64,000 nucleotides of DNA, from contig OX359190.1 of the NCBI GenBank assembly GCA_947172415.1, positions 496,001 to 560,000 of the forward strand, written 5' to 3'. This DNA comes from Chondrosia reniformis. Taxonomy: Eukaryota; Porifera; Demospongiae; Chondrillida; Chondrillidae. The notes under the pieces were generated by a model that searched no databases, was not told the origin of the DNA, and worked only from the letters and a program-made list of their open reading frames with translations. Shown here piece by piece: positions 10,359 through 64,000 of this stretch. The position numbers and the translations under genes were made by a program. Each line of letters begins with the position of its first letter. Positions within the stretch are counted from its first letter, which is position 1.

Positions 10359-10423
10359 GTTAGTATAATTGTCAGATGGAGATATCAGACCTTCTCATTA
10401 ATCTAACAATATGCTTTTGGCAG

Positions 10424-24730: not shown

Positions 24731-25917
24731 AACTATAATTTTAAGTACTATTTTGTACTATATAGAGATAATTGCGTAATATTATATATGGCCGACCGTT
24801 AGAAGGTGTATGTAACGATAAAATTCGATACTATATCTGAAAATCTAGAAGACTTTCTAAATTTTATTATACATTGGAAAATGCACTGTGTAGCACTTGA
24901 TTGTTATTGAAGCACTATCTATCCATATTTAATATATGGATCTGGTTAAAGTGAAATTTTGTCAATCGACGGCCAACGAAACTGCAAAGAAAAAAAGTTG
25001 GACCATACCGAACGCTACCATCCACGACGCTCAGAGGCCGGGATCGGTGGTAACGCTCTGCCGAGTTGAGCTTTGGGTGTCACTTGCGTGAGAAGAACCA
25101 GTTCTTCTCGATATGGCCGACTCATATGAATCCTAAGATATCAGATGCCAATCCCACATTACGTGGAACCCCCCCGAAATCCGGATTATTGGTGAGCACG
25201 TCTCTATGGCACCAACCGATTAGGAGACAGCTTCAGAGTCTAAGCGCTACCAACCTCTATGGGAACCGCAACCACCATAGAGATGTGTCCAGGTAGGCCT
25301 ACTATATAAGGTTTTTCGCTTCTATTTATATGAAGTTTTGTCCAAAGAAAACGGTTGTGGTTGGGGCTTTTTTTATATATTTCTCGTTATTTCCAGATCG
25401 GTGAACTGTTTCAAGCAAGTTTAAAGACATAGGGAGTATTTGTGGTTCATCTGAAAACTGCGGAAAGCGGAAATTATCCTGTAAGTATCTTGATGGGCCG
25501 AGGAGAACGACTTTTCTGATCCCAATTATTTTCGAGAAATCGTCAATTTATTCCACTCTAATTCTAGATCAGTAAATGGTTCCAAGCAATTTTACACACA
25601 TACGCAGTATTTCCAATACATTTCAAAACTGTGGCAAATGGGTAAAAGCCTGTATGTGTCTTGGTGGAGGGAGGAGAGCGACTTTTCATGATACAGAAAA
25701 CTGGATATAGTGCGAGGACCGATATTTATCGCCTTGACGATATTAATGTTTATGATCGATATTGCAACTGACCCGGCTGTATGAATTACTCTAAGTCTAA
25801 TTCCAAACTTACGTTTTAGCGTATATAAATATATTCTAATTTCTAGATATATGTTAAATAATGTTTTTAAAGGAAACTGTAACTCCAAAAATATTTTAAA
25901 TTATTCTTTCTAAACGT
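24731..25917 (+). repeat. Satellite-embedded core element, copy 1 (1187 bp)
   Basis: This block is unrelated to the satellite. It runs from AACTATAATTTTAAGTAC to TTATTCTTTCTAAACGT. It holds dyads ATCCATAT/ATATGGAT (24921-24941), GAGAAGAAC/GTTCTTCTC (25090-25109) and CTCTATGG/CCATAGAG (25255-25282), a TATA-like TATATAAG at 25303-25310 just after CCAG|GTAGGC, and two diverged direct repeats (25395-25520 and 25566-25692), each followed by a GTAAGT/GTATGT-like site. The GC-richer part is 25000-25290. Open frames on both strands (76 and 98 codons) start at TTG, not ATG, so coding is doubtful. No terminal repeats or target duplication are visible. Nature unknown. Confidence 0.85.
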
Positions 25918-28900
25918 AAATGTATTGTGAGAGAGAGGGAAAAGATGAACATACATTATAAACTTCAAAAACGTTTTACAAATGTTTCATACATGCCTGT
26001 GAATGCTGACTTCACGTATTAGTCTCATATGTTAGTGATTGATAGAGTTACAGCAATAAATGTACATTAAATTCTTGTATACAAAATTAATGTATGGTAA
26101 GAGATAGGGCAAATTTAAAGTTGCATCAAAATTTAAAAAACACATTGGATATACTCCGTAAATGACTGTGAAAGCTGACACAAAGTCCCAGCTTCATATA
26201 TGTCAATTTGATAGAGTTACAGCCCTCAATGTACAATAAATTCTTATATACAAAGTTAATGTATGGTGAGAGATAAGGCAAATTTTAGGTTTCATCAAAA
26301 TTTCAAAAACACATTAGATATACTCCCTAGGTGACTGTGAATGCTGACACAAAGTCCCAGCTTCATATATGTCAATTTGATAGAGTTACAGCCCTCAATG
26401 TACAATAAATTCTTGTATACAAAGTTAATGTATGGTGAGAGATAAGGCAAATTTTAAGTTTCATCAAAATTTCAAAAACACGTTAGATATACTCCCTAGG
26501 TGACTGTGAATGCTGACATAAAGTCCCAGCTTCATTTATGTCAATTTGATAGAGTCACAGCCCTCAAAGTTCATTAAATTCTTGTATACAAACTTATTGT
26601 ATGGTGAGAGATAGGGAAAATTTAAAATTTCACCAAAATTTCAAAAACACATTGGATATACTCCCTAGGTGACTGTGAAAGCTGACACAAAGTCCCAGCT
26701 TCATATAAGTCAATTTGGTAGAGTTACAGCCCTCAATGTATATTAAATTCTTGTATACAAAATTAATGTATGGTAAGGGATAAGGCAAATTTAAAGTTGC
26801 ATCAAAATTTAAAAAACACATTGGATATACTCCATAGGTGACTGTGAATGCTGACACAAAGTCCCAGCTTCATATATGTCAATTTGATAGAGTTACAGCC
26901 CTCAATGTACAATAAATTCTTATATACAAAGTTAATGTATGGTGACAGATAAGGCAAATTTTAAGTTGCATCAAAATTTCAAAAACACGTTAGATATACT
27001 CCCTAGGTGACTGTGAATGCTGACATAAAGTCCCAGCTTCATATATGTCAATTTGGTAGAGTTACAGCCCTCAATGTACAATAAATTCTTGTATACAAAG
27101 TTAATGTATGGTGAGAGATAAGGCAAATTTTAAGTTGCATCAAAATTTCAAAAACACGTTAGATATACTCCCTAGGTGACTGTGAATGCTGACATTAAGT
27201 TCCAGCTTCATTTATATCAATTTGATAGAGTTATAGCCCTCAATGTACATTAAATTCTTGTATACAAAATTAATGTATGGTGAGAGATAGGGCAAATTTT
27301 AAGTTGCATCAAAATTTCAAAAACACATTGGATAAACTCCATAGGTGACTGTGAAAGCTGACATAAAGTCCCAGCTTCATATAAGTCAATTTGGTAGAGT
27401 TACAGCCCTCAATGTACATTAAATTCTTGTATACAAAGTTAATGTATGGTGAGAGATTAGGCAAATTTTAAGTTTCATCAAAATTTCAAAAACACGTTAG
27501 ATATACTCCCTAGGTGACTGTGAATGCTGACATAAAGTCCCAGCTTCATATAAGTCAATTTGGTAGAGTTACAGCCCTCAATGTTCATTAAATTCTTTTA
27601 TACAAACTTAATGTATGGTGAGAGATAGGGCAAATTTTAAGTTGCATCAAAATTTCAAAAACACATTGGATATACTCCATAGGTGAATGTGAAAGCTGAC
27701 ACAAAGTCCCAGCTTCATATAAGTCAATTTGGTAGAGTTACAGCCCTCAATGTACATTAAATTCTTGTATACAAAATTAATGTATGGTGAGAGATAGGGC
27801 AAATTTAAAGTTGCATCAAAATTTAAAAAACACATTAGATATACTCCCTAGGTGACTGTGAATGCTGACAGAAAGTCCCAGCTTCATATATGTCAATTTG
27901 GTAGAGTTACAGCCCTCAATGTACAATAAATTCCTGTATACAAAGTTAATGTATGGTGAGAGATAAGGCAAATTTTAAGTTTCATCAAAATTTCAAAAAC
28001 ACGTTAGATATACTCCCTAGGTGACTGTGAATACTGACATTAAGTCCCAGCTTCATTTATGTCAATTTGATAGAGTTACAGCCCTCAATGTTCATTAAAT
28101 TCTTTTATACAAACTTAATGTATGGTGAGAGATAGGGCAAATTTTAAGTTGCATCAAAATTTCAAAAACACATTGGATATACTCCATAGGTGAATGTGAA
28201 AGCTGACACAAAGTCCCAGCTTCATATAAGTCAATTTGGTAGAGTTAACAGCCCTCAATGTACATTAAATTCTTGTATACAAAATTAATGTATGGTGAGA
28301 GATAGGGCAAATTTAAAGTTGCATCAAAATTTAAAAAACACATTAGATATACTCCCTAGGTGACTGTGAATGCTGACATAAAGTCCCAGCTTCATATATG
28401 TCAATTTGGTAGAGTTACAGCCCTCAATGTACAATAAATTCCTGTATACAAAGTTAATGTATGGTGAGAGATAAGGCAAATTTTAAGTTTCATCAAAATT
28501 TCAAAAACACGTTAGATATACTCCCTAGGTGACTGTGAATGCTGACATTAAGTCCCAGCTTCATTTATGTCAATTTGATAGAGTTACAGCCCTCAATGTT
28601 CATTAAATTCTTTTATACAAAATTAATGTATGGTGAGAGATAGGGCAAATTTTAAGTTGCATCAAAATTTCAAAAACACATTGGATATACTCCATAGGTG
28701 ACTGTGAAAGCTGACACAAAGTCCCAGCTTCATATATGTCAATTTGGTAGAGTTACAGCCCTCAATGTACATTAAATTCTTGTATACAAAATTAATGTAT
28801 GGTGAGAGATAAGGCAAATTTAAAATTTCACCAAAATTTCAAAAACACATTGGATATACTCCCTAGGTGACTGTGAAAGCTGACACAAGGTCCCAGCTTC

Positions 28901-31900
28901 ATATAAGTCAATTTGGTAGAGTTACAGCCCTCAATGTTCATTAAATTCTTGTATACAAAATTAATGTATGGTGAGAGATAGGCAAATTTAAAGTTGCATC
29001 AAAATTTAAAAAACACATTGGATATACTGCATAGGTGACTGTAAAAGCTGACACAAAGTCCCAGCTTCATATATGTCAATTTGATAGAGTTACAGCCCTC
29101 AATGTTCATTAAATTCTTATATACAAAGTTAATGTATGGTGAGAGATAAGAAAATTTTAAGTTTCATCAAAATTTAAAAAACACATTAGATATACTCCCT
29201 AGGTGACTGTGAATGCTGACATAAAGTCCCAGCTTCATATAAGTCAATTTGGTAGAGTTACAGCCCTCAATGTACATTAAATTCTTGTGTACAAATTAAT
29301 GTATGGTGAGAGATAAAGCAAATTTTAAGTTTCATCAAAATTTCAAAAACACATTAGATATATATACTCCCTAGGTGACTGTGAATGCTGACATAAAGTC
29401 CCAGCTTCATATATGTCAATTTGATTGAGTTACAGCCCTCAATGTACAATAAATTCTTATATACAAAGTTAATGTATGGTGAGAGATAAGGCAAATTTTA
29501 AGTTTCATCAAAATTTCAAAAACACATTAGATATACTCCCTAGGTGACTGTGAATGCTGACATAAAGTCCCAGCTTCATATAAGTCAATTTGGTAGAGTT
29601 ACAGCCCTCAATGTACATTAAATTCTTGTGTACAAAGTTAATGTATGGTGAGAGATAAAGCAAATTTTAAGTTTCATCAAAATTTCAAAAACACATTAGA
29701 TATATATACTCCCTAGGTGACTGTGAATGCTGACATAAAGTCCCAGCTTCATATATGTCAATTTGGTTGAGTTACAGCCCTCAATGTACAATAAATTCTT
29801 GTATACAAAGTTAATGTATGGTGAGAGATAAGGCAAATTTTAAGTTGCATCAAAATTTCAAAAACACGTTAGATATACTCCCTAGGTGACTGTGAATGCT
29901 GACATTAAGTCCCAGCTTCATTTATGTCAATTTGATAGAGTTACAGCCCTCAATGTTCATTAAATTCTTTTATACAAAATTAATGTATGGTGAGAGATAA
30001 GGCAAATTTAAAATTTCACCAATATTTCAAAAACACATTGGATATACTCCCTAGGTGACTGTGAAAGCTGACACAAGGTCCCAGCTTCATATAAGTCAAT
30101 TTGGTAGAGTTACAGCCCTCAATGTTCATTAAATTCTTGTATACAAAATTAATGTATGGTGAGAGATAGGCAAATTTAAAGTTGCATCAAAATTTAAAAA
30201 ACACATTGGATATACTCCATAGGTGACTGTGAAAGCTGACACAAAGTCCCAGCTTCATATATGTCAATTTGATAGAGTTACAGCCCTCAATGTACAATAA
30301 ATTCTTATATACAAAGTTAATGTATGGTGAGAGATAAGGCAAATTTTAAGTTTCATCAAAATTTCAAAAACACATTAGATATACTCCCTAGGTGACTGTG
30401 AATGCTGACATAAAGTCCCAGCTTCATATAAGTCAATTTGGTAGAGTTACAGCCCTCAATGTACATTAAATTCTTGTGTACAAAGTTAATGTATGGTGAG
30501 AGATAAAGCAAATTTTAAGTTTCATCAAAATTTCAAAAACACATTAGATATATATACTCCCTAGGTGACTGTGAATGCTGACATAAAGTCCCAGCTTCAT
30601 ATATGTCAATTTGGTTGAGTTACAGCCCTCAATGTACAATAAATTCTTGTATACAAAGTTAATGTATGGTGAGAGATAAGGCAAATTTTAAGTTGCATCA
30701 AAATTTCAAAAACACGTTAGATATACTCCCTAGGTGACTGTGAATGCTGACATTAAGTCCCAGCTTCATTTATGTCAATTTGATAGAGTTACAGCCCTCA
30801 ATGTTCATTAAATTCTTTTATACAAAATTAATGTATGGTGAGAGATAAGGCAAATTTAAAATTTCACCAATATTTCAAAAACACATTGGATATACTCCCT
30901 AGGTGACTGTGAAAGCTGACACAAGGTCCCAGCTTCATATAAGTCAATTTGGTAGAGTTACAGCCCTCAATGTTCATTAAATTCTTGTATACAAAATTAA
31001 TGTATGGTGAGAGATAGGCAAATTTAAAGTTGCATCAAAATTTAAAAAACACATTGGATATACTCCATAGGTGACTGTGAAAGCTGACACAAAGTCCCAG
31101 CTTCATATATGTCAATTTGATAGAGTTACAGCCCTCAATGTACAATAAATTCTTATATACAAAGTTAATGTATGGTGAGAGATAAGGCAAATTTTAAGTT
31201 TCATCAAAATTTCAAAAACACATTAGATATACTCCCTAGGTGACTGTGAATGCTGACATAAAGTCCCAGCTTCATATAAGTCAATTTGGTAGAGTTACAG
31301 CCCTCAATGTACATTAAATTCTTGTGTACAAAGTTAATGTATGGTGAGAGATAAAGCAAATTTTAAGTTTCATCAAAATTTCAAAAACACATTAGATATA
31401 TATACTCCCTAGGTGACTGTGAATGCTGACATAAAGTCCCAGCTTCATATATGTCAATTTGGTTGAGTTACAGCCCTCAATGTACATTAAATTCTTGTGT
31501 ACAAAGTTAATGTATGGTGAGAGATAAAGCAAATTTTAAGTTTCATCAAAATTTCAAAAACACATTAGATATATATACTCCCTAGGTGACTGTGAATGCT
31601 GACATAAAGTCCCAGCTTCATATATGTCAATTTGGTTGAGTTACAGCCCTCAATGTACAATAAATTCTTGTATACAAAGTTAATGTATGGTGAGAGATAA
31701 GGCAAATTTTAAGTTGCATCAAAATTTCAAAAACACGTTAGATATACTCCCTAGGTGACTGTGAATGCTGACATAAAGTCCCAGCTTCATTTATATCAAT
31801 TTGATAGAGTTACAGCCCTCAATGTTCATTAAATTCTTGTATACAAAATTAATGTATGGTGAGAGATAAGGCAAATTTAAAATTTCACCAAAATTTCAAA

Positions 31901-34900
31901 AACACATTGGATATACTCCCTAGGTGACTGTGAATGATGACATAAAGTCCCAGCTTCATATAAGTCAATTTGGTAGAGTTACAGCCCTCAATGTACATTA
32001 AATTCTTGTGTACAAAGTTAATGTATGGTGAGAGATAAAGCAAATTTTAAGTTTCATCAAAATTTCAAAAACACATTAGATATATATACTCCCTAGGTGA
32101 CTGTGAATGCTGACATAAAGTCCCAGCTTCATATATGTCAATTTGGTTGAGTTACAGCCCTCAATGTACATTAAATTCTTGTGTACAAAGTTAATGTATG
32201 GTGAGAGATAAGGCAAATTTTAAGTTACATCAAAATTTCAAAAACACGTTAGATATACTCCCTAGGTGACTGTGAATGCTGACATAAAGTACCAGCTTCA
32301 TTTATATCAATTTGATAGAGTTACAGCCCTCAATGTTCATTAAATTCTTGTATACAAAATTAATGTATGGTGAGAGATAGGGCAAATTTTCAGTTGAATC
32401 AAAATTTCAAAAACACATTGGATATACTCCATAGGTGACTGTGAAAGCTGACACAAAGTCCCAGCTTCATATAAGTCAATTTGGTAGAGTTACAGCCCTC
32501 AATGTACATTAAATTCTTATATACAAAATTAATGTATGGTGAGAGATAAGGCAAATTTAAAATTTCATCAAAATTTCAAAAACACATTGGATATACTCCA
32601 TAGGTGACTGTGAAAGCTGACACAAAGTCCCAGCTTCATTTATTTCAATTTGGTAGAGTTACAGCCCTCAATGTACATTAAATTCTTGTATACAAAATTA
32701 ATGTATGGTGAGAGATAAGGCAAATTTAAAATTTCACCAAAATTTCAAAAACACATTGGATATACTCCCTAGGTGACTGTGAATGATGACATAAAGTCCC
32801 AGCTTCATATATGTCAATTTGGTAGAGTTACAGCCCTCAATGTACATTAAATTCTTGTATACAAAAGTAATGTATGGTGAGAGATAGGGCAAATTTAAAG
32901 TTGCATCAAAATTTTAAAAAAACACATTAGATATACTCCCTAGGTGACTGTGAATGCTGACATAAAGTCCCAGCTTCATATATGTCAATTTGGTAGAGTT
33001 ACAGCCCTCAATGTACAATACATTCTTGTATACAAAGTTAATGTATGGTGAGAGATAAGGCAAATTTTAAGTTTCATCAAAATTTCAAAAACACGTTAGA
33101 TATACTCCCTAGGTGACTGTGAATGCTGACATTAAGTCCCAGCTGCATTTATGTCATTTTGATAGAGTTACAGCCCTCAATGTTCATTAAATTCTTTTAT
33201 ACAAAATTAATGTATTGTGAGAGATAAGGGAAATTTTAAGTTGCATCAAAATTTCAAAAACACATTGGATATACTCCATAGGTGAATGTGAAAGCTGACA
33301 CAAAGTCCCAGCTTCATATAAGTCAATTTGGTAGAGTTACAGCCCTCAATGTACATTAAATTCTTATATACAAAATTAATGTATGGTGAGAGATAAGGCA
33401 AATTTAAAATTTCATCAAAATTTCAAAAACACATTGGATATACTCCATAGGTGACTGTGAAAGCTGACACAAAGTCCCAGCTTCATTTATTTCAATTTGG
33501 TAGAGTTACAGCCCTCAATGTACATTAAATTCTTGTATACAAAATTAATGTATAGTGAGAGATAAGGCAAATTTAAAATTTCACCAAAATTTCAAAAACA
33601 CATTGGATATACTCCCTAGGTGACTGTGAATGATGACATAAAGTCCCAGCTTCATATATGTCAATTTGGTAGAGTTACAGCCCTCAATGTACATTAAATT
33701 CTTGTATACAAAAGTAATGTATTGTGAGAGATAGGGCAAATTTAAAGTTGCATCAAAATTTAAAAAACACATTAGATATACTCCCTAGGTGACTGTGAAT
33801 GCTGACATAAAGTCCCAGCTTCATATATGTCAATTTGGTAGAGTTACAGCCCTCAATGTACAATAAATTCCTGTATACAAAGTTAATGTATGGTGAGAGA
33901 TAAGGCAAATTTTAAGTTTCATCAAAATTTCAAAAACACGTTAGATATACTCCCTAGGTGACTGTGAATGCTGACATTAAGTCCCAGCTTCATTTATGTC
34001 AATTTGATAGAGTTACAGCCCTCAATGTTCATTAAATTCTTTTATACAAAATTAATGTATGGTGAGAGATAAGGCAAATTTTAAGTTGCAACAAAATTTC
34101 AAAAACACATTGGATATACTCCATAGGTGAATGTGAAAGCTGACACAAAGTCCCAGCTTCATATATGTCAATTTGGTAGAGTTACAGCCCTCAATGTACA
34201 ATAAATTCTTGTATACAAAGTTAATGTATGGTGAGAGATAAGGCAAATTTTAAGTTGCATCAAAATTTCAAAAACACGTTAGATATTCTCCCTAGGTGAC
34301 TGTGAATGCTGACATAAAGTCCCAGCTTCATATAAGTCAATTTGGTAGAGTTACAGCCCTCAATGTTCATTAAATTCTTTTATACAAACTTAATGTATGG
34401 TGAGAGATAGGGCAAATTTTCAGTTGCATCAAAATTTCAAAAACACATTGGATATACTCCATAGGTGACTGTGAAAGCTGACACAAAGTCCCAGCTTCAT
34501 ATAAGTCAATTTGGTAGAGTTACAGCCCTCAATGTACATTAAATTCTTATATACAAAATTAATGTATGGTGAGAGATAAGGCAAATTTAAAATTTCATCA
34601 AAATTTCAAAAACACATTGGATATACTCCATAGGTGACTGTGAAAGCTGACACAAAGTCCCAGCTTCATTTATGTCAATTTGGTAGAGTTACAGCCCTCA
34701 ATGTACATTAAATTCTTGTATACAAAATTAATGTATGGTGAGAGATAAGGCAAATTTAAAATTTCATCAAACTTTCAAAAACACATTGGATATACTCCAT
34801 AGGTGACTGTGAAAGCTGACACAAAGTCCCAGCTTCATATAAGTCAATTTGGTAGAGTTACAGCCCTCAATGTACATTAAATTCTTATATACAAAATTAA

Positions 34901-35380
34901 TGTATGGTGAGAGATAAGGCAAATTTAAAATTTCATCAAAATTTCAAAAACACATTGGATATACTCCATAGGTGACTGTGAAAGCTGACACAAAGTCCCA
35001 GCTTCATTTATGTCAATTTGGTAGAGTTACAGCCCTCAATGTACATTAAATTCTTGTATACAAAATTAATGTATGGTGAGAGATAAGGCAAATTTAAAAT
35101 TTCATCAAACTTTCAAAAACACATTGGATATACTCCATAGGTGACTGTGAAAGCTGACACAAAGTCCCAGCTTCATATATGTCAATTTGGTAGAGTTACA
35201 GCCCTCAATGTACAATAAATTCTTTTATACAATTTTTTTTAAAGTTAATGTATGGTGAGAGATATGGCAAATTTTAAGTTGCATCAAAATTTCAAAAACA
35301 CATTGGACATACTCCATAGGTGACTGTGAATGCTGACACAAAGTCACAGCTTCATATCTTTCCATTTGATAGAGTTACAG
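25918..35380 (+). repeat. 169-bp satellite array 1 (about 56 monomers)
   Basis: The head-to-tail monomer is AT-rich, with landmarks TGGTGAGAGATA, CATCAAAATTTCAAAAACAC, AGTCCCAGCTTCAT and GAGTTACAGCCCTCAATGTA. Two main variant classes (GGATATACTCCATAGGTGA and AGATATACTCCCTAGGTGA) intermix. The first unit after the core is strongly diverged. A five-monomer higher-order period of 848 bp is visible at about 29.7-32 kb. Confidence 0.97.
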
Positions 35381-36567
35381 AACTATAATTTTAAGTACTA
35401 TTTTGTACTATATAGAGATAATTGCGTAATATTATATATGGCCGACCGTTAGAAGGTGTATGTAACGATAAAATTCGATACTATATTTGAAAATCTAGAA
35501 GACTTTCTAAATTTTATTATACATTGGAAAATGCACTGTGTAGCACTTGATTGTTATTGAAGCACTATCTATCCATATTTAATATATGGATCTGGTTAAA
35601 GTGAAATTTTGTCAATCGACGGCCTACGAAACTGCAAAGAAAAAAAGTTGGACCATACCGAACGCTACCATCCACGACGCTCAGAGGCCGGGATCGGTGG
35701 TAACGCTCTGCCGAGTTGAGCTTTGGGTGTCACTTGCGTGAGAAGAACCAGTTCTTCTCGATATGGCCGACTCATATGAATCCTAAGATATCAGATGCCA
35801 ATCCCACATTACGTGGAACCCCCCCGAAATCCGGATTATTGGTGAGCACGTCTCTATGGCACCAACCGATTAGGAGACAGCTTCAGAGTCTAAGCGCTAC
35901 CAACCTCTATGGGAACCGCAACCACCATAGAGATGTGTCCAGGTAGGCCTACTATATAAGGTTTTTCGCTTCTATTTATATGAAGTTTTGTCCAAAAAAA
36001 ACGGTTGTGGTTGGGGCTTTTTTTATATATTTCTCGTTATTTCCAGATCGGTGAACTGTTTCAAGCAAGTTTAAAGACATAGGGAGTATTTGTGGTTCAT
36101 CTGAAAACTGCGGAAAGCGGAAATTATCCTGTAAGTGTCTTGATGGGCCGAGGAGAACGACTTTTCTGATCCCAATTATTTTCGAGAAATCGTCAATTTA
36201 TTCCACTCTAATTCTAGATCAGTAAATGGTTCCAAGCAATTTTACACACATACGCAGTATTTCCAATACATTTCAAAACTGTGGCAAATGGGTAAAAGCC
36301 TGTATGTGTCTTGGTGGAGGGAGGAGAGCGACTTTTCATGATACAGAAAACTGGATATAGTGCGAGGACCGATATTTATCGCCTTGACGATATTAATGTT
36401 TATGATCGATATTGCAACTGACCCGGCTGTATGAATTACTCTAAGTCTAATTCCAAACTTACGTTTTAGCGTATATAAATATATTCTAATTTCTAGATAT
36501 ATGTTAAATAATGTTTTTAAAGGAAACTGTAACTCCAAAAATATATTAAATTATTCTTTCTAAACGT
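35381..36567 (+). repeat. Core element, copy 2 (1187 bp)
   Basis: Same length and orientation as copy 1, with scattered single-base differences such as GGCCTACG for GGCCAACG and AAAAAAAACGG for AAAGAAAACGG. Confidence 0.95.
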
Positions 36568-42500: not shown

Positions 42501-42799
42501 AGATAGGGCAAATTTAAAATTTCATCAAAATTTCAAAAACACATTGGATATACTCCATAGGTGACTGTGAAAGCTGACACAAAGTCCCAGCTTCATATAT
42601 GTCAATTTGGTAGAGTTACAGCCCTCAATGTACAATAAATTATTGTATACAATTTTTTTAAAGTTAATGTATGGTGAGAGATATGGCAAATTTTAAGTTG
42701 CATCAAAATTTCAAAAACACATTGGACATACTTCATAGGTGACTGTGAATGCTGACACAAAGTCACAGCTTCATATCTTTCCATTTGATAGAGTTACAG
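36568..42799 (+). repeat. 169-bp satellite array 2 (about 37 monomers)
   Basis: Head-to-tail monomers. The unit next to core 3 carries a T-run insertion (TATACAATTTTTTTAAAG, about 42645-42662). Confidence 0.97.
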
Positions 42800-46900: not shown

Positions 46901-47185
46901 AAAATTTCATCAAAATTTCAAAAACACATTGGATATACTCCATAGGTGACTGTGAAAGCTGACACAAAGTCCCAGCTTCATATATGTCAATTTGGTAGAG
47001 TTACAGCCCTCAATGTACAATAAATTATTGTATACAAATTTTTTTAAAGTTAATGTATGGTGAGAGATATGGCAAATTTTAAGTTGCATCAAAATTTCAA
47101 AAACACATTGGACATACTCCATAGGTGACTGTGAATGCTGACACAAAGTCACAGCTTCATATCTTTCCATTTGATAGAGTTACAG
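43987..47185 (+). repeat. 169-bp satellite array 3 (about 19 monomers)
   Basis: Head-to-tail monomers. The T-run insertion occurs in two successive monomers (about 46857 and 47037) before core 4. A TTCAAACACACATTGG variant occurs several times near 44.9-45.7 kb. Confidence 0.97.
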
Positions 47186-53587: not shown

Positions 53588-54774
53588 AACTATAATTTTA
53601 AGTACTATTTTGTACTATATAGAGATAATTGCGTAATATTATATATGGCCGACCGTTAGAAGGTGTATGTAACGATAAAATTCGATACTATATCTGAAAA
53701 TCTAGAAGACTTTCTAAATTTTATTATACATTGGAAAATGCACTGTGTAGCACTTGATTGTTATTGAAGCACTATCTATCCATATTTAATATATGGATCT
53801 GGTTAAAGTGAAATTTTGTCAATCGACGGCCAACGAAACTGCAAAGAAAAAAAGTTGGACCATACCGAACGCTACCATCCACGACGCTCAGAGGCCGGGA
53901 TCGGTGGTAACGCTCTGCCGAGTTGAGCTTTGGGTGTCACTTGCGTGAGAAGAACCAGTTCTTCTCGATATGGCCGACTCATATGAATCCTAAGATATCA
54001 GATGCCAATCCCACATTACGTGGAACCCCCCCGAAATCCGGATTATTGGTGAGCACGTCTCTATGGCACCAACCGATTAGGAGACAGCTTCAGAGTCTAA
54101 GCGCTACCAACCTCTATGGGAACCGCAACCACCATAGAGATGTGTCCAGGTAGGCCTACTATATAAGGTTTTTCGCTTCTATTTATATGAAGTTTTGTCC
54201 AAAGAAAACGGTTGTGGTTGGGGCTTTTTTTATATATTTCTCGTTATTTCCAGATCGGTGAACTGTTTCAAGCAAGTTTAAAGACATAGGGAGTATTTGT
54301 GGTTCATCTGAAAACTGCGGAAAGTAGAAATTATCCTGTAAGTGTCTTGATGGGCCGAGGAGAACGACTTTTCTGATCCCAATTATTTTCGAGAAATCGT
54401 CAATTTATTCCACTCTAATTCTAGATCAGTAAATGGTTCCAAGCAATTTTACACACATACGCAGTATTTCCAATACATTTCAAAACTGTGGCAAATGGGT
54501 AAAAGCCTGTATGTGTCTTGGTGGAGGGAGGAGAGCGACTTTTCATGATACAGAAAACTGGATATAGTGCGAGGACCGATATTTATCGCCTTGACGATAT
54601 TAATGTTTATGATCGATATTGCAACTGACCCGGCTGTATGAATTACTCTAAGTCTAATTCCAAACTTACGTTTTAGCGTATATAAATATATTCTAATTTC
54701 TAGATATATGTTAAATAATGTTTTTAAAGGAAACTGTAACTTCAAAAATATATTAAATTATTCTTTCTAAACGT
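53588..54774 (+). repeat. Core element, copy 5 (1187 bp)
   Basis: It has GGAAAGTAGAAATT for GGAAAGCGGAAATT and shares ACTTCAAAAATATAT with copy 3. Confidence 0.95.
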
Positions 54775-56322
54775 AAATGTATTGTGAGAGAGAGGGAAAA
54801 GATGAACATACATTATAAACTTCAAAAACGTTTTACAAATGTTTCATACATGCCTGTGAATGCTGACTTCAGGTATTAGTCTCATATGTTAGTGATTGAT
54901 AGAGTTAAAGCAATAAATGTACATTAAATTCTTGTATACAAAATTAATGTATGGTGAGAGATAGGGCAAATTTAAAGTTGCATCAAAATTTCAAAAACAC
55001 GTTAGATATACTCCCTAGGTGACTGTCAAAGATGACACAAAGTCCCAACTTCATATATGTCAATTTGGTAGAGTTACAGCCCTCAATGTACATTAAATTC
55101 TTGTATACAAAATTAATGTATGGTGAGAGATAGGGCAAATTTAAAGTTGCATCAAAATTTAAAAAACACATTGGATATACTCCATAGGTGACTGTAAAAC
55201 CTGACACAAAGTCCCAGCTTCATATAAGTCAATTTGGTAGAGTTACAGCCCTCAATGTACATTAAATTCTTGTATACAAAATTAATGTATGGTAAGAGAT
55301 AGGGCAAATTTAAAGTTGCATCAAAATTTAAAAAACACATTGGATATACTCCATAGGTGACTGTGAAAGCTGACACAAAGTCCCAGCTTCATATATGTCA
55401 ATTTGGTAGAGTTACAGCCCTCAATGTACAATAAATTCTTATATACAAAGTTAATGTATGGTGAGAGATAGGCAAATTTTAAGTTTCATCAAAATTTCAA
55501 AAACACATTAGATATACTCCCTAGGTGACTGTGAATGCTGACACAAAGTTCCAGCTTCATATAGGTCAATTTGATAGAGTTACAGCCCTCAATGTACAAT
55601 AAATTCTTGTATACAGTCAATTTGGTAGAGTTACAGCCCTCAATGTACATTAAATTCTTGTATACAAAATCAATGTATGGTGAGAGATAGGGCAAATTTA
55701 AAGTTGCATCAAAATTTAAAAAACACATTGGATATACTCCATAGGTGACTGTGAATGCTGACATAAAATCCCAGCTTCATTTATGTCAATTTGATAGAGT
55801 TACAGCCCTCAATGTTCATTAAATTCTTGTATACAAAATTAATGTATGGTGAGAGATAAGGCAAATTTTTAGTTGCATCAAAATTTCAAAAACGCATTGG
55901 ATATACTCCATAGGTGACTGTGAAAGCTGACACAAAGTCCCAGCTTCATATAAGTCAATTTGGTAGAGTTAAAGCCCTCATTGTACATTAAATTCTTGTA
56001 TACAAAATTAATGTATGGTGAGAGATAAGGCAAATTTAAAATTTCATCAAAATTTCAAAAACACATTGGATATACTCCATAGGTGACTGTGAAAGCTGAC
56101 ACAAAGTCCCAGCTTCATATATGTCAATTTGGTAGAGTTACAGCCCTCAATGTACAATAAATTCTTGTATACAATTTTTTTTAAAGTTAATGTATGGTGA
56201 GAGATATGGCAAATTTTAAGTTGCATCAAAATTTCAAAAACACATTGGACATACTCCATAGGTGACTGTGAATGCTGACACAAAGTCACAGCTTCATATC
56301 TTTCCATTTGATAGAGTTACAG
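54775..56322 (+). repeat. 169-bp satellite array 5 (about 9 monomers, one deletion junction)
   Basis: At about 55616 GTATACA is joined directly to GTCAATTTGG, deleting part of a monomer. A T-run monomer precedes core 6. Confidence 0.95.
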
Positions 56323-57516
56323 AACTATAATTTTAAGTACTATTTTGTACTATATAGAGATAATTGCGTAATATTATATATGGCCGACCGTTAGAAGGTG
56401 TATGTAACGATAAAATAAATTCGATACTATATCTGAAAATCTAGAAGACTTTCTAAATTTTATTATACATTGGAAAATGCACTGTGTAGCACTTGATTGT
56501 TATTGAAGCACTATCTATCCATATTTAATATATGGATCTGGTTAAAGTGAAATTTTGTCAATCGACGGCCAACGAAACTGCAAAGAAAAAAAGTTGGACC
56601 ATACCGAACGCTACCATCCACGACGCTCAGAGGCCGGGATCGGTGGTAACGCTCTGCCGAGTTGAGCTTTGGGTGTCACTTGCGTGAGAAGAACCAGTTC
56701 TTCTCGATATGGCCGACTCATATGAATCCTAAGATATCAGATGCCAATCCCACATTACGTGGAACCCCCCCGAAATCCGGATTATTGGTGAGCACGTCTC
56801 TATGGCACCAACCGATTAGGAGACAGCTTCAGAGTCTAAGCGCTACTACCAACCTCTATGGGAACCGCAACCACCATAGAGATGTGTCCAGGTAGGCCTA
56901 CTATATAAGGTTTTTCGCTTCTATTTATATGAAGTTTTGTCCAAAGAAAACGGTTGTGGTTGGGGCTTTTTTTATATATTTCTCGTTATTTCCAGATCGG
57001 TGAACTGTTTCAAGCAAGTTTAAAGACATAGGGAGTATTTGTGGTTCATCTGAAAACTGCGGAAAGCGGAAATTATCCTGTAAGTGTCTTGATGGGCCGA
57101 GGAGAACGACTTTTCTGATCCCTATTATTTTCGAGAAATCGTCAATTTATTCCACTCTAATTCTAGATCAGTAAATGGTTCCAAGCAATTTTACACACAT
57201 ACGCAGTATTTCCAATACATTTCAAAACTGTGGCAAATGGGTAAAAGCCAATATGAGTCTTGGTGGAGGGAGGAGAGCGACTTTTCATGATACAGAAAAC
57301 TGGATATAGTGCGAGGACCGATATTTATCGCCTTGACGATATTAATGTTTATGATCGATATTGCAACTGACCCGGCTGTATGAATTACTCTAAGTCTAAT
57401 TCCAAACTTACGTTTTAGCGTATATAAATATATTCTAATTTCTAGATATATGTTAAATAATGTTTTTAAAGGAAACTGTAACTCCAAAAATATTTTAAAT
57501 TATTCTTTCTAAACGT
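56323..57516 (+). repeat. Core element, copy 6 (1194 bp)
   Basis: It has the 4-nt AAAT insertion (GATAAAATAAATTCG) shared with copies 7 and 8, plus a private 3-nt duplication (CGCTACTACC). Confidence 0.95.
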
Positions 57517-59106
57517 AAATGTATTGTGAGAGAGAGGGAAAAGATGAACATACATTATAAACTTAAAAACGTTTTACAAATGTTTCATACATGCCTGTGA
57601 ATGCTGACTTCACGTATTAGTCTCATATGTTAGTAATTGATAGAGTTACAGCAATAAATGTACATTAAATTCCATAGGTGACTGTGAAAGCTGACACAAA
57701 GTCCCAGCTTCATATAAGTCAATTTGATAGAGTTACAGCCCTCAATGTACATTAAATTCTTGTATACTAAATTAATGTATGGTGAGAGATAGGGCAAATT
57801 TAAAGTTGCATCAAAATTTAAAAAACACATTGGATATACTCCATAGGTGACTGTGAAAGCTGACACAAAGTCCCAGCTTCATATATGTCAATTTGTTAGG
57901 GTTACAGCCCTCAATGTACAATAAATTCTTATATATTAAGTTAATGTATGGTGAGAGATAAGGCAAATTTTAAGTTTCATCAAAATTTCAAAAACACATT
58001 AGATATACTCCCTTTGTGACTCTGAATGCTGACATAAAGTCCCAGCTTCATATATGTCAATTTGGTAGAGTTACAGCCCTCAATGTACAATAAATTCTTG
58101 TATACAAAGTTAATGTATGGTGAGATATAAGGCAAATTTTAAGTTTCATCAAAATTTCAAAAACACATTAGATATACTCCCTAGGTGACTGTGAATGCTG
58201 ACATAAAGTCCCAGCTTCATATATGTCAATTTGGTAGAGTTACAGCCCTCAATGTACAATAAATTCTTGTATACAAAGTTAATGTATGGTGAGAAATAAG
58301 GCAAATTTTATAATTAAGTTTCATCAAAATTTCAAAAACACATTAGATATACTCCATAGGTGACTGTGAATGCTGGCATAAAGTCCCAGCTTCATATATG
58401 TCAATTTGGTAGAGTTACAGCCCTCAATGTACAATAAATTCTTGTATACAAAGTTAATGTATGGTGAGAGATAAGGCAAATTTTAAGTTTCATCAAAATT
58501 TCAAAAACACGTTAGATATACTCCATAGGTGACTGTGAATGCTGACATAAAGTCCCAGCTTCATTTATGTCAATTTGATAGAGTTACAGCCCTCAATGTT
58601 CATTAAATTCTTGTATACAAAATTAATGTATGGTGAGCGATAGGGCAAATTTTCAGTTGCATCAAAATTTCAAAAACACATTGGATATACTCCATAGGTG
58701 ACTGTGAAAGCTGACACAAAGTCCCAGCTTCATATAAGTCAATTTGGTAGAGTTACAGCCCTCAATGTACATTAAATTCTTGTATACAAAATTAATGTAT
58801 GGTGAGAGATAAGGCAAATTTAAAATTTCATCAAAATTTCAAAAACACATTGGATATACTCCATAGGTGACTGTGAAAGCTGACACAAAGTCCCAGCTTC
58901 ATATATGTCAATTTGGTAGAGTTACAGCCCTCAATGTACAATAAATTCTTGTATACAAATTTTTTTAAAGTTAATGTATGGTGAGAGATATGGCAAATTT
59001 TAAGTTGCATCAAAATTTCAAAAACACATTGGACATACTCCATAGGTGACTGTGAATGCTGACACAAAGTCACAGCTTCATATCTTTCCATTTGATAGAG
59101 TTACAG
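57517..59106 (+). repeat. 169-bp satellite array 6 (about 9.4 monomers, one deletion junction)
   Basis: At about 57671 ACATTAAATTC joins CATAGGTGAC, removing most of a monomer. A T-run monomer occurs at about 58957 before core 7. Confidence 0.95.
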
Positions 59107-60297
59107 AACTATAATTTTAAGTACTATTTTGTACTATATAGAGATAATTGCGTAATATTATATATGGCCGACCGTTAGAAGGTGTATGTAACGATAAAAT
59201 AAATTCGATACTATATCTGAAAATCTAGAAGACTTTCTAAATTTTATTATACATTGGAAAATGCACTGTGTAGGACTTGATTGTTATTGAAGCACTATCT
59301 ATCCATATTTAATATATGGATCTGGTTAAAGTGAAATTTTGTCAATCGACGGCCAACGAAACTGCAAAGAAAAAAAGTTGGACCATACCGAACGCTACCA
59401 TCCACGACGCTCAGAGGCCGGGATCGGTGGTAACGCTCTGCCGAGTTGAGCTTTGGGTGTCACTTGCGTGAGAAGAACCAGTTCTTCTCGATATGGCCGA
59501 CTCATATGAATCCTAAGATATCAGATGCCAATCCCACATTACGTGGAACCCCCCCGAAATCCGGATTATTGGTGAGCACGTCTCTATGGCACCAACCGAT
59601 TAGGAGACAGCTTCAGAGTCTAAGCGCTACCAACCTCTATGGGAACCGCAACCACCATAGAGATGTGTCCAGGTAGGCCTACTATATAAGGTTTTTCGCT
59701 TCTATTTATATGAAGTTTTGTCCAAAGAAAACGGTTGTGGTTGGGGCTTTTTTTATATATTTCTCGTTATTTCCAGATCGGTGAACTCTTTCAAGCAAGT
59801 TTAAAGACATAGGGAGTATTTGTGGTTCATCTGAAAACTGCGGAAAGCGGAAATTATCCTGTAAGTGTCTTGATGGGCCGAGGAGAACGACTTTTCTGAT
59901 CCCAATTATTTTCGAGAAATCGTCAATTTATTCCACTCTAATTCTAGATCAGTAAATGGTTCCAAGCAATTTTACACACATACGCAGTATTTCCAATACA
60001 TTTCAAAACTGTGGCAAATGGGTAAAAGCCTGTATGTGTCTTGGTGGAGGGAGGAGAGCGACTTTTCATGATACAGAAAACTGGATATAGTGCGAGGACC
60101 GATATTTATCGCCTTGACGATATTAATGTTTATGATCGATATTGCAACTGACCCGGCTGTATGAATTACTCTAAGTCTAATTCCAAACTTACGTTTTAGC
60201 GTATATAAATATATTCTAATTTCTAGATATATGTTAAATAATGTTTTTAAAGGAAACTGTAACTCCAAAAATATTTTAAATTATTCTTTCTAAACGT
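59107..60297 (+). repeat. Core element, copy 7 (1191 bp)
   Basis: It has the AAAT insertion, and TGTAGGACTTG shared only with copy 8. GAACTCTTTC is shared with copies 3 and 4. Confidence 0.95.
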
Positions 60298-61446
60298 AAA
60301 TGTATTGTGAGAGAGAGGGAAAAGATGAACATACATTATAAACTTCAAAAACGTTTTACAAATGTTTCATACATGCCTGTGAATGCTGACTTCACGTATT
60401 AGTCTCATATGTTAGTGATTGATAGAGTTACAGCAATAAATGTACATTAAATTCTTGTATACAAAATTAATGTATGGTGAGAGATAGGGCAAATTTAAAG
60501 TTGCATCTAAATTTCAAAAACACGTTAGATATACTCCCTAGGTGACTGTCAAAGCTGACACAAAGTCCCAGCTTCATATATGTCAATTTGGTAGAGTTAC
60601 AGCCCTCAATGTACAATAAATTCTTGTATACAAAGTTAATGTATGGTGAGAGATAGGGCAAATTTTAAGTTGCATCAAAATTTCAAAAACACATTGGATA
60701 TACTCCATAGGTGACTATGAAAGCTGACACAAAGTCCCAGCTTCATATAAGTCAATTTGGTAGAGTTACAGCCCTCAATGTACATTAAATTCTTGTATAC
60801 AAAATTAATGTATGGTGAGAGATAGGGCAAATTTAAAGTTGCATCAAAATTTAAAAAACACATTGGATATACTCCATAGGTGACTATGAAAGCTGACACA
60901 AAGTCCCAGCTTCATATAAGTCAATTTGGTAGAGTTACAGCCCTCAATGTACATTAAATTCTTGTATACAAAATTAATGTATGGTGAGAGATAGGCAAAT
61001 TTAAAGTTTCATCAAAATTTCAAAAACACATTAGATATACTCCCTAGGTGACTGTGAAAGCTGACACAATGTCCCAGCTTCATATAAGTCAATTTGGTAG
61101 AGTTACAGCCCTCAATGTACATTAAATTCTTGTATACAAAATCAATGTATGGTGAGAGATAGGGCAAATTTAAAGTTGCATCAAAATTTAAAAAACACAT
61201 TGGATATACTCCATAGGTGACTGTGAAAGCTGACACAAAGTCCCAGCTTCATATATGTCAATTTGATAGAGTTACAGCCCTCAATGTACAATAAATTCTT
61301 ATATACAAAGTTAATGTATGGTGAGAGATAAGGCAAATTTTAAGTTGCATCAAAATTTCAAAAACACATTGGACATACTCCATAGGTGACTGTGAATGCT
61401 GACACAAAGTCACAGCTTCATATCTTTCCATTTGATAGAGTTACAG
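60298..61446 (+). repeat. 169-bp satellite array 7 (about 7 monomers)
   Basis: The shortest array. The unit before core 8 lacks the T-run insertion but keeps the junction-type ATTGGACATACTCC. Confidence 0.95.
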
Positions 61447-62637
61447 AACTATAATTTTAAGTACTATTTTGTACTATATAGAGATAATTGCGTAATATTA
61501 TATATGGCCGACCGTTAGAAGGTGTATGTAACGATAAAATAAATTCGATACTATATCTGAAAATCTAGAAGACTTTCTAAATTTTATTATACATTGGAAA
61601 ATGCACTGTGTAGGACTTGATTGTTATTGAAGCACTATCTATCCATATTTAATATATGGATCTGGTTAAAGTGAAATTTTGTCAATCGACGGCCAACGAA
61701 ACTGCAAAGAAAAAAAGTTGGACCATACCGAACGCTACCATCCACGACGCTCAGAGGCCGGGATCGGTGGTAACGCTCTGCCGAGTTGAGCTTTGGGTGT
61801 CACTTGCGTGAGAAGAACCAGTTCTTCTCGATATGGCCGACTCATATGAATCCTAAGATATCAGATGCCAATCCCACATTACGTGGAACCCCCCCGAAAT
61901 CCGGATTATTGGTGAGCACGTCTCTATGGCACCAACCGATTAGGAGACAGCTTCAGAGTCTAAGCGCTACCAACCTCTATGGGAACCGCAACCACCATAG
62001 AGATGTGTCCAGGTAGGCCTACTATATAAGGTTTTTCGCTTCTATTTATATGAAGTTTTGTCCAAAGAAAACGGTTGTGGTTGGGGCTTTTTTTATATAT
62101 TTCTCGTTATTTCCAGATCGTTGAACTGTTTCAAGCAAGTTTAAAGACATAGGGAGTATTTGTGGTTCATCTGAAAACTGCGGAAAGCGGAAATTATCCT
62201 GTAAGTGTCTTGATGGGCTGAGGAGAACGACTTTTCTGATCCCAATTATTTTCGAGAAATCGTCAATTTATTCCACTCTAATTCTAGATCAGTAAATGGT
62301 TCCAAGCAATTTTACACACATACGCAGTATTTCCAATACATTTCAAAACTGTGGCAAATCGGTAAAAGCCTGTATGTGTCTTGGTGGAGGGAGGAGAGCG
62401 ACTTTTCATGATACAGAAAACTGGATATAGTGCGAGGACCGATATTTATCGCCTTGACGATATTAATGTTTATGATCGATATTGCAACTGACCCGGCTGT
62501 ATGAATTACTCTAAGTCTAATTCCAAACTTACGTTTTAACGTATATAAATATATTCCAATTTCTAGATATATGTTAAATAATGTTTTTAAAGGAAACTGT
62601 AACTCCAAAAATATTTTAAATTATTCTTTCTAAACGT
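61447..62637 (+). repeat. Core element, copy 8 (1191 bp)
   Basis: It has the AAAT insertion and TGTAGGACTTG as in copy 7, and private changes such as GATCGTTGAACTG and GATGGGCTGAGG. Confidence 0.95.
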
Positions 62638-64000
62638 AAATGTATTGTGAGAGAGAGGGAAAAGATGAACATACATTATAAACTTCAAAAACGTTTTAAA
62701 AATGTTTCATACATGCCTGTGAATGCTGACTTCACGTATTAGTCTCATATGTTAGTGATTGATAGAGTTACAGCAATAAATGTACATTAAATTCTTCTAT
62801 ACAAAGTTAATGTACGTATGGTGAGAGATAGGGCAAATTTAAAGTTGCATCAAAATTTAAAAAACACATTGGATATACTCCATAGGTGACTGTGAAAGCT
62901 GACACAAAGTCCCAGCTTCATATAAGTCAATTTGATAGAGTTACAGCCCTCAATGTACATTAAATTCTTGTATACAAAATTAATGTATGGTGAGAGATAG
63001 GGCAAATTTAAAGTTGCATCAAAATTTAAAAAACACATTGGATATACTCCATAGGTGACTGTGAAAGCTGACACAAAGTCCCAGCTTCATATATGTCAAT
63101 TTGGTAGAGTTACAGCCCTCAATGTACAATAAATTCTTGTATACCAAGTTAATGTATGGTGAGAGATAAGGCAAATTTTAAGTTTCATCAAAATTTCAAA
63201 AACACGTTAGATATACTCCCTAGGTGACTGTGAATGCTGACATAAAGTCCCAGCTTCATTTATGTCAATTTGATAGAGTTACAGCCCACAATGTTCATTA
63301 AATTCTTGTATACAAAATTAATGTATGGTGAGAGATAGGGCAAATTTAAAATTTCACCAAAATTTCAAAAACACATTGGATATACTCCCTAGGTGACTGT
63401 GAAAGCTGACACAAAGTGCCAGCTTCATATAAGTCAATTTGGTAGAGTTACAGCCCTCAATGTACATTAAATTCTTGTATACAAAATTAATGTATGGTGA
63501 GAGATAAGGCAAATTTAAAGTTGCATCAAAATTTCAAAAACACATTAGATATACTCCCTAGGTGACTGTGAATGCTGACACAAAGTCCCAGCTTCATATA
63601 TGTCAATTTGATAGAGTTACAGCCCTCAATGTACAATAAATTCTTATATACAAAGTTAATGTATGGTGAGAGATAAGGCAAATTTTAAGTTTCATCAAAA
63701 TTTCAAAAACACATTAGATATACTCCCTAGGTGACTGTGAAAGCTGACACAAAGTCCCAGCTTCATATAAGTCAATTTGGTAGAGTTACAGCCCTCAATG
63801 TACATTAAATTCTTGTATACAAAATTAATGTATGGTGAGAGATAGGGCAAGTTTAAAGTGTCATCAAAATTTCAAAAACACATTGGATATACTCCATAGG
63901 TGACTGTGAAAGCTGACACAAAGTCCCAGCTTCATATAAGTCAATTTGATAGAGTTACAGCCCTCAATGTACAATAAATTCTTATATACAAAGTTAATGT
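62638..64000 (+). repeat. 169-bp satellite array 8 (about 8 monomers, continues beyond the window)
   Basis: Head-to-tail monomers run to the last base, so the array end is not seen. Confidence 0.97.

What the first reader, a model, noticed from the sequence alone, without database searches (positions are those of the whole stretch)
24731..64000. Composite satellite: 169-bp arrays punctuated by eight identical-orientation 1.19-kb core elements
Eight cores (1187, 1187, 1187, 1187, 1187, 1194, 1191, 1191 bp) sit in one continuous 169-bp satellite at irregular spacing (arrays of about 56, 37, 19, 31, 9, 9, 7 and 8+ monomers). Independent transposon insertions would give mixed orientation and different insertion phases. 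Here every core has the same orientation and enters and leaves the monomer at the same point. That suggests core and flanks amplify as one unit, for example by unequal exchange, rolling circles, or a Helitron-like element with internal tandem repeats. Alpha-satellite-like monomer size also makes a centromeric role possible.
Basis: partly seen in the sequence, partly recalled or inferred. Interest (0 to 1): 0.85.

Follow-up and report, generated by a model that had tools for sequence, protein, structure and literature searches.

The report
Sponge satellite carrying an unknown RNA gene
In a sponge genome, the repeated "core" inside a satellite DNA array looks like a gene for an unknown small RNA, present in about 800 nearly identical copies and driven by the same kind of promoter as the sponge's splicing RNAs, although it has not been shown to be transcribed.

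Summary
Eight same-strand cores (the other seven 98.7-99.5% identical to the query copy) sit in 169-bp satellite. Five more same-strand cores follow up to about C2:578 kb. Each core contains a 306-bp block that is nearly invariant between units with unalignable flanks: subfamily A versus B is 99.3% in the block, 74% in the promoter, 34.5% further upstream. The block has the edges of an snRNA-type gene on the minus strand. The proximal sequence element (PSE) seen before this sponge's U1, U2 and RNase P RNA genes lies at -62, TATAAATA at -28, and a T7 run at the 3' end. Promoter plus RNA 5' end match exactly at 805 places in the genome (reversed control 0). No Rfam family matches. Copies lie in 23 clusters along chromosome 1, against a centromere-specific role. 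Other subfamilies join satellite at other points or in opposite orientation. A TA insertion recurs on unrelated flanks, suggesting exchange confined to the gene. Best reading: a new, massively multicopy, probably Pol III-transcribed RNA family amplified with its satellite. Expression and function are untested.

The parts
24997..25302 (-). ncRNA gene copy 1, predicted 306-nt RNA (5' end at about 25302)
   Evidence: block nearly invariant across subfamilies; coordinates
24990..24996 (-). T7 run, predicted Pol III terminator of copy 1
   Evidence: T>=6 in 76 of 78 sampled cores
25323..25330 (-). TATAAATA at -28 of copy 1
25347..25364 (-). PSE of copy 1 (starts at -62)
   Evidence: PWM trained on U1/U2 upstreams only
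35640..36014 (-). gene copy 2: T-run, RNA 35647-35952, TATA 35973-35980, PSE 35997-36014 (last base substituted)
43059..43433 (-). gene copy 3: RNA 43066-43371 with TATA and PSE
47445..47819 (-). gene copy 4: RNA 47452-47757 with TATA and PSE
53847..54221 (-). gene copy 5: RNA 53854-54159 with TATA and PSE
56586..56963 (-). gene copy 6: RNA 56593-56901 (309 nt, 3-nt insertion) with TATA and PSE
59370..59744 (-). gene copy 7: RNA 59377-59682 with TATA and PSE
61710..62084 (-). gene copy 8: RNA 61717-62022 with TATA and PSE
24298..24730 (+). forward 169-bp monomers left of core 1
23755..24297 (-). diverged inverted monomers at the left edge of the array
26039..35380 (+). 169-bp satellite array, 55 monomers
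36689..42799 (+). 169-bp satellite array, 36 monomers
44108..47185 (+). 169-bp satellite array, 18 monomers
48494..53587 (+). 169-bp satellite array, 30 monomers
54896..56322 (+). 169-bp satellite array, about 8 monomers, split by an indel
57671..59106 (+). 169-bp satellite array, 8 monomers
60419..61446 (+). 169-bp satellite array, 6 monomers
62759..64000 (+). 169-bp satellite array, 7+ monomers, running to the window's end

Best explanation
The core is the gene unit of a multicopy small-RNA family without an Rfam match. A 306-nt RNA is read on the minus strand from an snRNA-type promoter (PSE at -62, TATA at -28) and ends at a T7 run, so transcription by RNA polymerase III, type-3 style like RNase P RNA, is most likely. 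The flanking 169-bp satellite acts as the recombination partner that multiplies the unit: unequal exchange expands arrays locally, and occasional circles or ectopic exchange seed new sites. Selection plus gene conversion confined to the gene keeps the RNA almost invariant in about 800 copies while flanks diverge. Shown here: anatomy, promoter match to host genes, copy number, sharp conservation edges, RNA variants shared between unrelated flanks. Inferred: transcription, polymerase, the amplification route, conversion as the cause of shared variants, and any cellular function.
For: Conservation: in 18 representative loci the positions 25035-25294 agree with the reference copy at 1.00, the adjoining flanks mostly at 0.7-0.95 and lower further out. 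Among 44 cluster representatives, A versus B is 99.3% in the RNA, 74.0% in the promoter, 34.5% far upstream, 60.9% downstream; A versus D is 98.6% RNA and 47.6% far upstream. One A-B pair in 20-nt steps: 0.07 at -80, 0.85 at the PSE, then 1.00 from 0 through 299. Promoter: a PWM from 6 U1 and 4 U2 upstream regions hits 8 of 8 window cores at 23.0 (seven) and 19.8 (one); training genes 20.7-27.6, maximum of 20 shuffled windows 21.2. Genes not used in training: U2 L080/L085 (one shared upstream sequence) 19.3 at -59, RNase P RNA 24.9 at -68; in the fetched core loci all 81 hits >=19 precede this RNA, hits within 90 bp of a locus end not judged. Strict PSE in 77 of 78 cores; T>=6 in 76 of 78. Genome-wide exact promoter + 5' end 805 and 3' end + T5 739, reversed controls 0. 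Exchange: a TA insertion occurs in subfamilies A (9 cores), D (2) and C (1), in 10 clusters.
Against: No expression data could be searched. No Rfam match even at E<=10, so the RNA class is unknown. Folding of the minus strand is only mildly better than shuffles (z -1.64); the plus strand is slightly better (z -2.40). The two U6 matches and the RNase MRP gene of this sponge do not show the PSE, and 3 of 6 U1 upstream regions also carry TTTATAA, so TATA alone does not separate Pol II from Pol III here. I noticed the U1/U2 motif by eye while holding the core's motif in mind, so the PWM is not wholly independent; the genes left out of training are the cleaner test. Of 31 substitutions mapped on the predicted structure, 11 break a pair, 8 keep one, 12 are unpaired. 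In a minus-strand ORF of the window a PSE-like site scores 23.3, so single PSE hits are not proof. The 78 cores exclude block matches under about 280 bp, so broken copies are under-counted.
Confidence: 0.78

Rival explanations
1. The RNA is an already known snRNA-type RNA (7SK above all) that has diverged beyond Rfam's models and was amplified with satellite.
For: Length, external type-3 promoter and oligo-U end resemble 7SK-like genes (7SK features recalled); 7SK is called poorly conserved in sequence (passages of PMC8406779).
Against: No Rfam hit at E<=10 for a 471-bp stretch around the block. A 7SK search of the whole genome was not run. The GAUC repeat contacted by HEXIM is not evident: one GATC in the RNA, counted by eye (sequence). 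Pairwise comparison with the sponge's U1, U2 and RNase MRP RNAs is no better than shuffles (47, 73 and 160 of 200 reach it); U6 (2 of 200) and RNase P (11 of 200) are marginal. 7SK is normally low copy (recalled).
Confidence: 0.18
2. The unit is a non-autonomous mobile element with internal tandem repeats (Helitron/Helentron type, or a MITE with tandem repeats), and the block is a cis element needed for mobility.
For: About 800 dispersed copies; isolated satellite-core-satellite units flanked by other DNA (L041, L045); five of eight right-hand outer ends lie at phases 46-71.
Against: No single outer end among 15 read; the junction to satellite differs in phase and orientation among subfamilies; the conserved block is internal and its edges match a promoter and terminator rather than an element end. 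End motifs and target duplications of whole units were not searched systematically.
Confidence: 0.09
3. The block is conserved as DNA (origin, insulator or protein-binding platform), and the PSE recruits SNAPc without a functional RNA.
For: Conservation alone cannot tell DNA from RNA function; structure evidence is weak.
Against: Conservation runs from the start expected from PSE spacing to the T run, on one strand, as a transcript would; 306 contiguous nearly invariant bases are unusually long for a binding platform (inference).
Confidence: 0.08
4. Ordinary structural or centromeric satellite with a higher-order repeat unit; the core has no function.
For: Monomer length near nucleosome size; AT-rich monomer (33% GC).
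Against: Spread in 23 clusters along chromosome 1; a neutral core would not keep 99% identity next to unalignable flanks unless conversion alone did it.
Confidence: 0.04
5. SINE-like retroposon family: Pol III transcripts copied back into DNA.
For: Predicted transcript of SINE length with terminator.
Against: Copies carry the upstream external promoter (805 exact cases), which retroposition of the transcript would not bring along.
Confidence: 0.03

Closest known systems
snRNA-type (SNAPc/PSE-dependent) small-RNA genes such as RNase P RNA, 7SK, U6
   Same: PSE, TATA and T-run at usual distances; the PSE sequence is that of this sponge's U1, U2 and RNase P RNA genes
   Different: About 800 copies against 7 U1, 6 U2, 2 U6, 1 RNase P and 1 MRP matches found here (lower bounds, only the best candidates are scored); RNA matches no Rfam family; embedded in satellite
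Tandem multigene RNA families under concerted evolution (5S rRNA, spliced-leader RNA arrays; recalled)
   Same: Many near-identical RNA genes with diverging spacers
   Different: Spacer is a separate 169-bp satellite of very variable length, in both orientations; copies scattered in many clusters; no Rfam match
Helitrons/HINEs and tandem-repeat MITEs with satellite-like interiors (recalled)
   Same: Non-coding core plus ~170-bp tandem repeats, dispersed
   Different: No constant ends seen, variable junctions; conserved part is an internal gene
Alpha satellite / centromeric higher-order repeats (recalled)
   Same: Monomer length of about 170 bp
   Different: Interspersed gene units; core units dispersed rather than in one domain per chromosome

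Membership tests
snRNA-type (PSE-driven) gene | PSE of the host's own type about 55-65 bp upstream of the RNA start | tested here: met
   8 of 8 window cores at -62, U1/U2 at -58/-59; strict form in 77 of 78 sampled cores
snRNA-type (PSE-driven) gene, Pol III class | TATA element at about -25 to -30 | tested here: met
   TATAAATA at -28 in 8 of 8 window cores; not specific here, since 3 of 6 U1 upstreams also have TTTATAA
snRNA-type (PSE-driven) gene, Pol III class | T-run terminator at the RNA 3' end | tested here: met
   T>=6 in 76 of 78, T5 in 1, none of 5 or more in 1; 739 exact 3' end + T5 genome-wide
snRNA-type (PSE-driven) gene | stable transcript with these ends | not testable with these tools
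   no RNA reads at hand
any known Rfam RNA family | match to a covariance model | tested here: not met
   window at gathering score: only a tRNA outside the core; core at E<=5 and block at E<=10: none
Helitron/Helentron | constant termini of the element | tested here: not met
   15 outer satellite ends in 12 loci, phases spread from 29 to 159 (left) and 46 to 164 (right); BLAST ends are approximate; variable junctions
Helitron/Helentron | Rep/helicase in an autonomous relative | not tested
   only absence of ORFs of 150 aa or more in the array was seen
SINE | dispersal of the transcribed part only | tested here: not met
   promoter and flanks accompany the RNA
Centromeric satellite | one concentrated domain per chromosome | tested here: not met
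   23 clusters along chromosome 1; tested for the core unit on one chromosome, the satellite alone was not mapped
Centromeric satellite | CENP-A occupancy | not testable with these tools
   no ChIP data
7SK | Rfam model match; 5' HEXIM-binding GAUC repeat | tested here: inconclusive
   no Rfam match in the block, one GATC by eye; Rfam may miss diverged 7SK, and the whole genome was not searched for 7SK

The most novel reading that the evidence does not exclude
A selfish or symbiotic RNA-gene/satellite partnership in which the RNA itself drives homogenisation: the transcript, or a DNA copy of it, templates conversion of all copies, so that exactly the transcribed 306 bp, and not the promoter or flanks, is rewritten across chromosomes. 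This would explain why the edges of identity coincide with the predicted transcript ends and why the same RNA variants sit on barely alignable flanks. It would make this a new kind of repeat, a satellite kept in step by its own RNA.
Probability: 0.13. Interest if true: 0.95.

Novelty: new variant of a known kind. Interest (0 to 1): 0.8.

Why it matters
If true, a sponge holds about 800 near-identical copies of an RNA gene with no known family, over a hundred times the U1 genes found here, packaged in satellite DNA. It would add an animal RNA class with an unknown and presumably dosage-heavy job, show a satellite acting as an amplifier of a gene, and give a natural test of how far-apart copies are kept identical over exactly the transcribed segment. 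It also gives a PSE motif for this sponge, which helps find other RNA genes.

Tried and rejected
Species: first guessed Ciona. A 16-base Ciona spliced-leader sequence, recalled from memory, gave 0 matches. Four paper searches built on the Ciona guess were off target.

Known RNA: Rfam at gathering threshold and at permissive E-values gave nothing for the core. Comparison with the sponge's own U1, U2, U6, MRP and RNase P RNAs was not convincing; U6 reached a score matched by 2 of 200 shuffles, which I do not take as meaningful after five tests. RNA-to-satellite complementarity: longest exact antisense match 8 nt. Protein coding: longest ATG ORF 36 aa sense and 56 aa antisense; the one family search on typed peptides failed. 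Exact patterns from the RNA in the prokaryote genome and viral contig collections: 0 and 0. Structure support from natural variants: mixed. My first monomer consensus was out of register and was replaced.

Literature: searches for sponge satellite DNA (no paper), satellite DNA with snRNA genes (8 listed), 7SK with sponge (2 listed), PSE with snRNA promoters and sponge (12 of 35 listed) and Porifera ncRNA (7 listed) showed, in titles and abstract starts, nothing describing this family. Only passages of PMC12181767 and PMC8406779 were read. The library lacks most subscription papers, so absence in print is not established.

Sampling limits: pattern listings show only about the first 100 places, so 59 of the 78 sampled cores lie on chromosomes 1 and 2; sequence searches score only the best candidates (40). 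The 78 cores keep only block matches of about 280 bp or more: the copy split by an insertion and a diverged copy in L043, a fragment in L040 and copies cut by locus ends were dropped. In one search two U2 loci (L080, L085) were printed in the wrong orientation and left out of PSE training; they were reread. Of 7 U1 matches, 6 upstream regions were read. In one search many of the ends printed for the 13 loci are locus ends or core junctions; 15 ends in 12 loci remain. Loci used in the PSE scan overlap, so its 81 hits are not 81 different places.
Full report
What the window is. The window lies at bases 496001-560000 of contig 2 of a 117.38-Mb, 15-contig genome. Contig lengths (10.41 and 10.29 Mb for the first two; 14 chromosomes plus a mitochondrion) match the kidney sponge Chondrosia reniformis, odChoReni1.1, chromosome 2 = OX359190.1 (passages and Table 3 of PMC12181767). 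That assembly is from PacBio HiFi reads with reported QV 69.8 for the primary assembly, which makes a simple collapse or chimera an unlikely cause of the pattern (inference).

Observation. Eight cores, all in + orientation, interrupt a 169-bp satellite; seven are 98.7-99.5% identical to the eighth. The 86 monomers of exactly 169 bp average 95.8% identity to their consensus. The repeated interval spans 1308-1312 bp; its last ~143 bp is a diverged monomer. Five more + cores follow up to C2:577 kb (list) and satellite ends near C2:578,370 (L039); 560-576 kb was read only in parts. The left edge has inverted diverged monomers (23755-24297), next to a tRNA-Asp gene.

The hidden feature. When cores from 18 representative loci were aligned, positions 25035-25294 agreed with the reference at 1.00 while the adjoining flanks mostly agreed at 0.7-0.95 and less further out. 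I then collected 78 cores from 11 chromosomes: 39 on C1, 20 on C2, 19 elsewhere, keeping only block matches of about 280 bp or more. B (9 cores) and D (7) have their own promoter spacers; A (45) and C (16) share one, C being set apart by an insertion in the RNA; one core was unassigned. For 44 cluster representatives the mean identities, gaps counted as differences, are: A-B RNA 99.3, promoter 74.0, far upstream 34.5, downstream 61-300 60.9; A-D RNA 98.6, promoter 77.8, far upstream 47.6, downstream 46.9; A-A RNA 99.0, promoter 98.4, far upstream 93.9, downstream 81.9. Subfamily C is 89.6% to A in the RNA, through several substitutions and a 29-nt insertion; that insertion can fold as a 7-bp stem with a UUCG loop. 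One A-B pair in 20-nt steps reads 0.07 just upstream of the PSE, 0.85 on it, 0.65-0.70 between, then 1.00 from position 0 through 299, then 0.85.

The edges are those of a gene. Read on the minus strand, the block ends at a T run (T7 in 66, T6 in 10, T5 in 1 of 78 cores, none of 5 or more in 1) and starts 28 bp after TATAAATA and 62 bp after CCAACCACAACCGTTTTC (8 of 8 window cores, one with the last base substituted). To test whether the latter is a PSE, I located the sponge's own U1 (7 matches), U2 (6), U6 (2), RNase MRP (1) and RNase P (1) RNA genes (lower bounds, only the best candidates are scored) and read upstream of 6 U1, all 6 U2, both U6, MRP and RNase P. The six U1 and the first four U2 regions share [AG]ACCACAA...TTT, the element beginning at -58 or -59. 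I recognised this by eye with the core's motif in mind, so the matrix made from those ten is not wholly independent. It scores the window cores at 23.0 (seven) and 19.8 (one), against 20.7-27.6 for the training genes and a maximum of 21.2 in 20 base-shuffled windows. Genes not used for training behave as they should: two U2 loci with one shared upstream sequence score 19.3 at -59, and the RNase P RNA gene 24.9 at -68; the latter also has ATAAATA and ends in T5, so a gene of the polymerase III class (recalled for animals) carries the same element. In the fetched core loci, which overlap, 81 hits at 19 or more lie 40-90 bp before this RNA's start and none lies elsewhere, hits within 90 bp of a locus end not judged. 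The core's PSE sits 3-4 bases further from the block edge than in U1/U2, so the true start may be at 25303-25306. Against this: the U6 and MRP genes show no such element, one minus-strand ORF in the window holds a site scoring 23.3 without a TATA-like element in the following 60 bases by eye, and 3 of the 6 U1 upstreams also carry TTTATAA, so TATA alone does not assign the polymerase.

Genome-wide counts. A 22-nt RNA pattern with up to 2 mismatches: 751. A 32-nt exact pattern from the RNA: 515. PSE + 34-50 nt + first 14 nt of the RNA, exact: 805. RNA 3' end plus T5, exact: 739. Each reversed control: 0. In the roughly 100 promoter matches listed, read by eye, an AAATAGA[AG]G element stays at the same place although the rest of the spacer differs among subfamilies. 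On chromosome 1, 69 exact copies form 23 clusters (20-kb gaps) from 72 kb to 10.33 Mb, with a median spacing inside clusters of 3.4 kb.

The satellite link. Of 78 cores, 71 have satellite on both sides within the DNA at hand (up to 1.3 kb), 6 on one side only, 1 on one side with the other unreadable. But the junctions are not constant. Of 22 cores read, two gave no left and one no right junction. In subfamilies A and C the satellite runs parallel to the core; the alignment stops at monomer phase 17 on the left in 5 of 10 and runs 8-35 bases further in the other 5, and on the right it starts at phase 122 in 5 of 11 and elsewhere in 6, the window's copy included. In B it is parallel with phases 61 and 84 in 4 of 4. 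In D it is antiparallel, left phase 50-51 in 6 of 6 and right phase 40-54 in 5 of 6. So the gene has been joined to satellite more than once, or the joints were rearranged. Fifteen outer satellite ends in 12 loci spread over phases 29-159 (left, 7 ends) and 46-164 (right, 8 ends; five of them between 46 and 71), which argues against fixed termini but does not exclude a weak preference (approximate BLAST ends).

How copies stay alike. Purifying selection on one copy among hundreds should be weak (inference). The data suggest exchange as well: a two-base TA insertion at RNA position 168 occurs in subfamilies A (9 cores), D (2) and C (1), in 10 clusters; A47G occurs in D (3) and A (2); C269A occurs in A (16) and C (14), whose flanks are alignable. 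Since A and D flanks are barely alignable, conversion limited to the gene is the simplest explanation, though independent mutation cannot be excluded. Heterology outside the gene could itself stop conversion tracts at the gene's edges, so an RNA-templated process is possible but not required.

What kind of RNA. No Rfam family matches. Folding gives a three-domain structure of -109.5 kcal/mol but only z -1.64 against shuffles, and the opposite strand has z -2.40. Natural variants give mixed support: of 31 substitutions 12 are unpaired, 8 keep and 11 break a pair; among the 10 found in three or more cores 1 breaks a pair, against 10 of the 21 rarer ones. The function is open. A diverged 7SK or similar is a live rival.

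Verdict. The Helitron and centromere readings are not supported. The array is one of many clusters of a massively multicopy, snRNA-type gene of unknown family embedded in satellite DNA. The anatomy and promoter match are shown; transcription, polymerase, amplification route and function are inferred.

Noticed in passing
L043:3131-7476 (C1:9,238,902-9,243,247): One RNA gene copy is split by a 4,346-bp insertion with ~26-bp terminal inverted repeats (CA[AG]TGGTCTCATTCTCCCC) and an 8-12-bp target duplication, with internal tandem repeats; it looks like a DNA transposon of hAT type (label recalled, not tested).
   Followed up: partly
window 1-15000: Segments of 250-760 bp recur at 80-97% identity (e.g. 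2560-3294 with 10661-11394; 3976-4717 with 11936-12694), suggesting duplicated gene pieces.
   Followed up: no
window 19430-20318: A 0.9-kb minisatellite (16-bp unit GGGTGGATGGATGAGT) lies among minus-strand ORF pieces that look like a WD-repeat dynein intermediate-chain-like protein (by eye; no family search).
   Followed up: no
window 23477-23548: tRNA-Asp(GTC) gene directly left of the satellite array.
   Followed up: no
C13:765951, C12:6259216, C8:5459986: The sponge's RNase MRP gene and two U6 matches (the second weak, 52 bits) lack the PSE shared by U1, U2 and RNase P RNA genes, which may mean a second class of snRNA-type promoter.
   Followed up: partly
L047-L057 among others: Subfamily C RNA carries a 29-nt insertion that contains a 7-bp UUCG hairpin plus several linked substitutions.
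   Followed up: partly
L041 and the diverged copy at L043:8780-9066: 4-bp insertions of TGCA/CATG type occur at three different places in RNA copies; origin unexplained.
   Followed up: no
window 22588-22607 (-): A PSE-like site scoring 23.3 lies in a minus-strand ORF (22310-22960); no TATA-like element follows in the next 60 bases by eye, so probably chance.
   Followed up: partly
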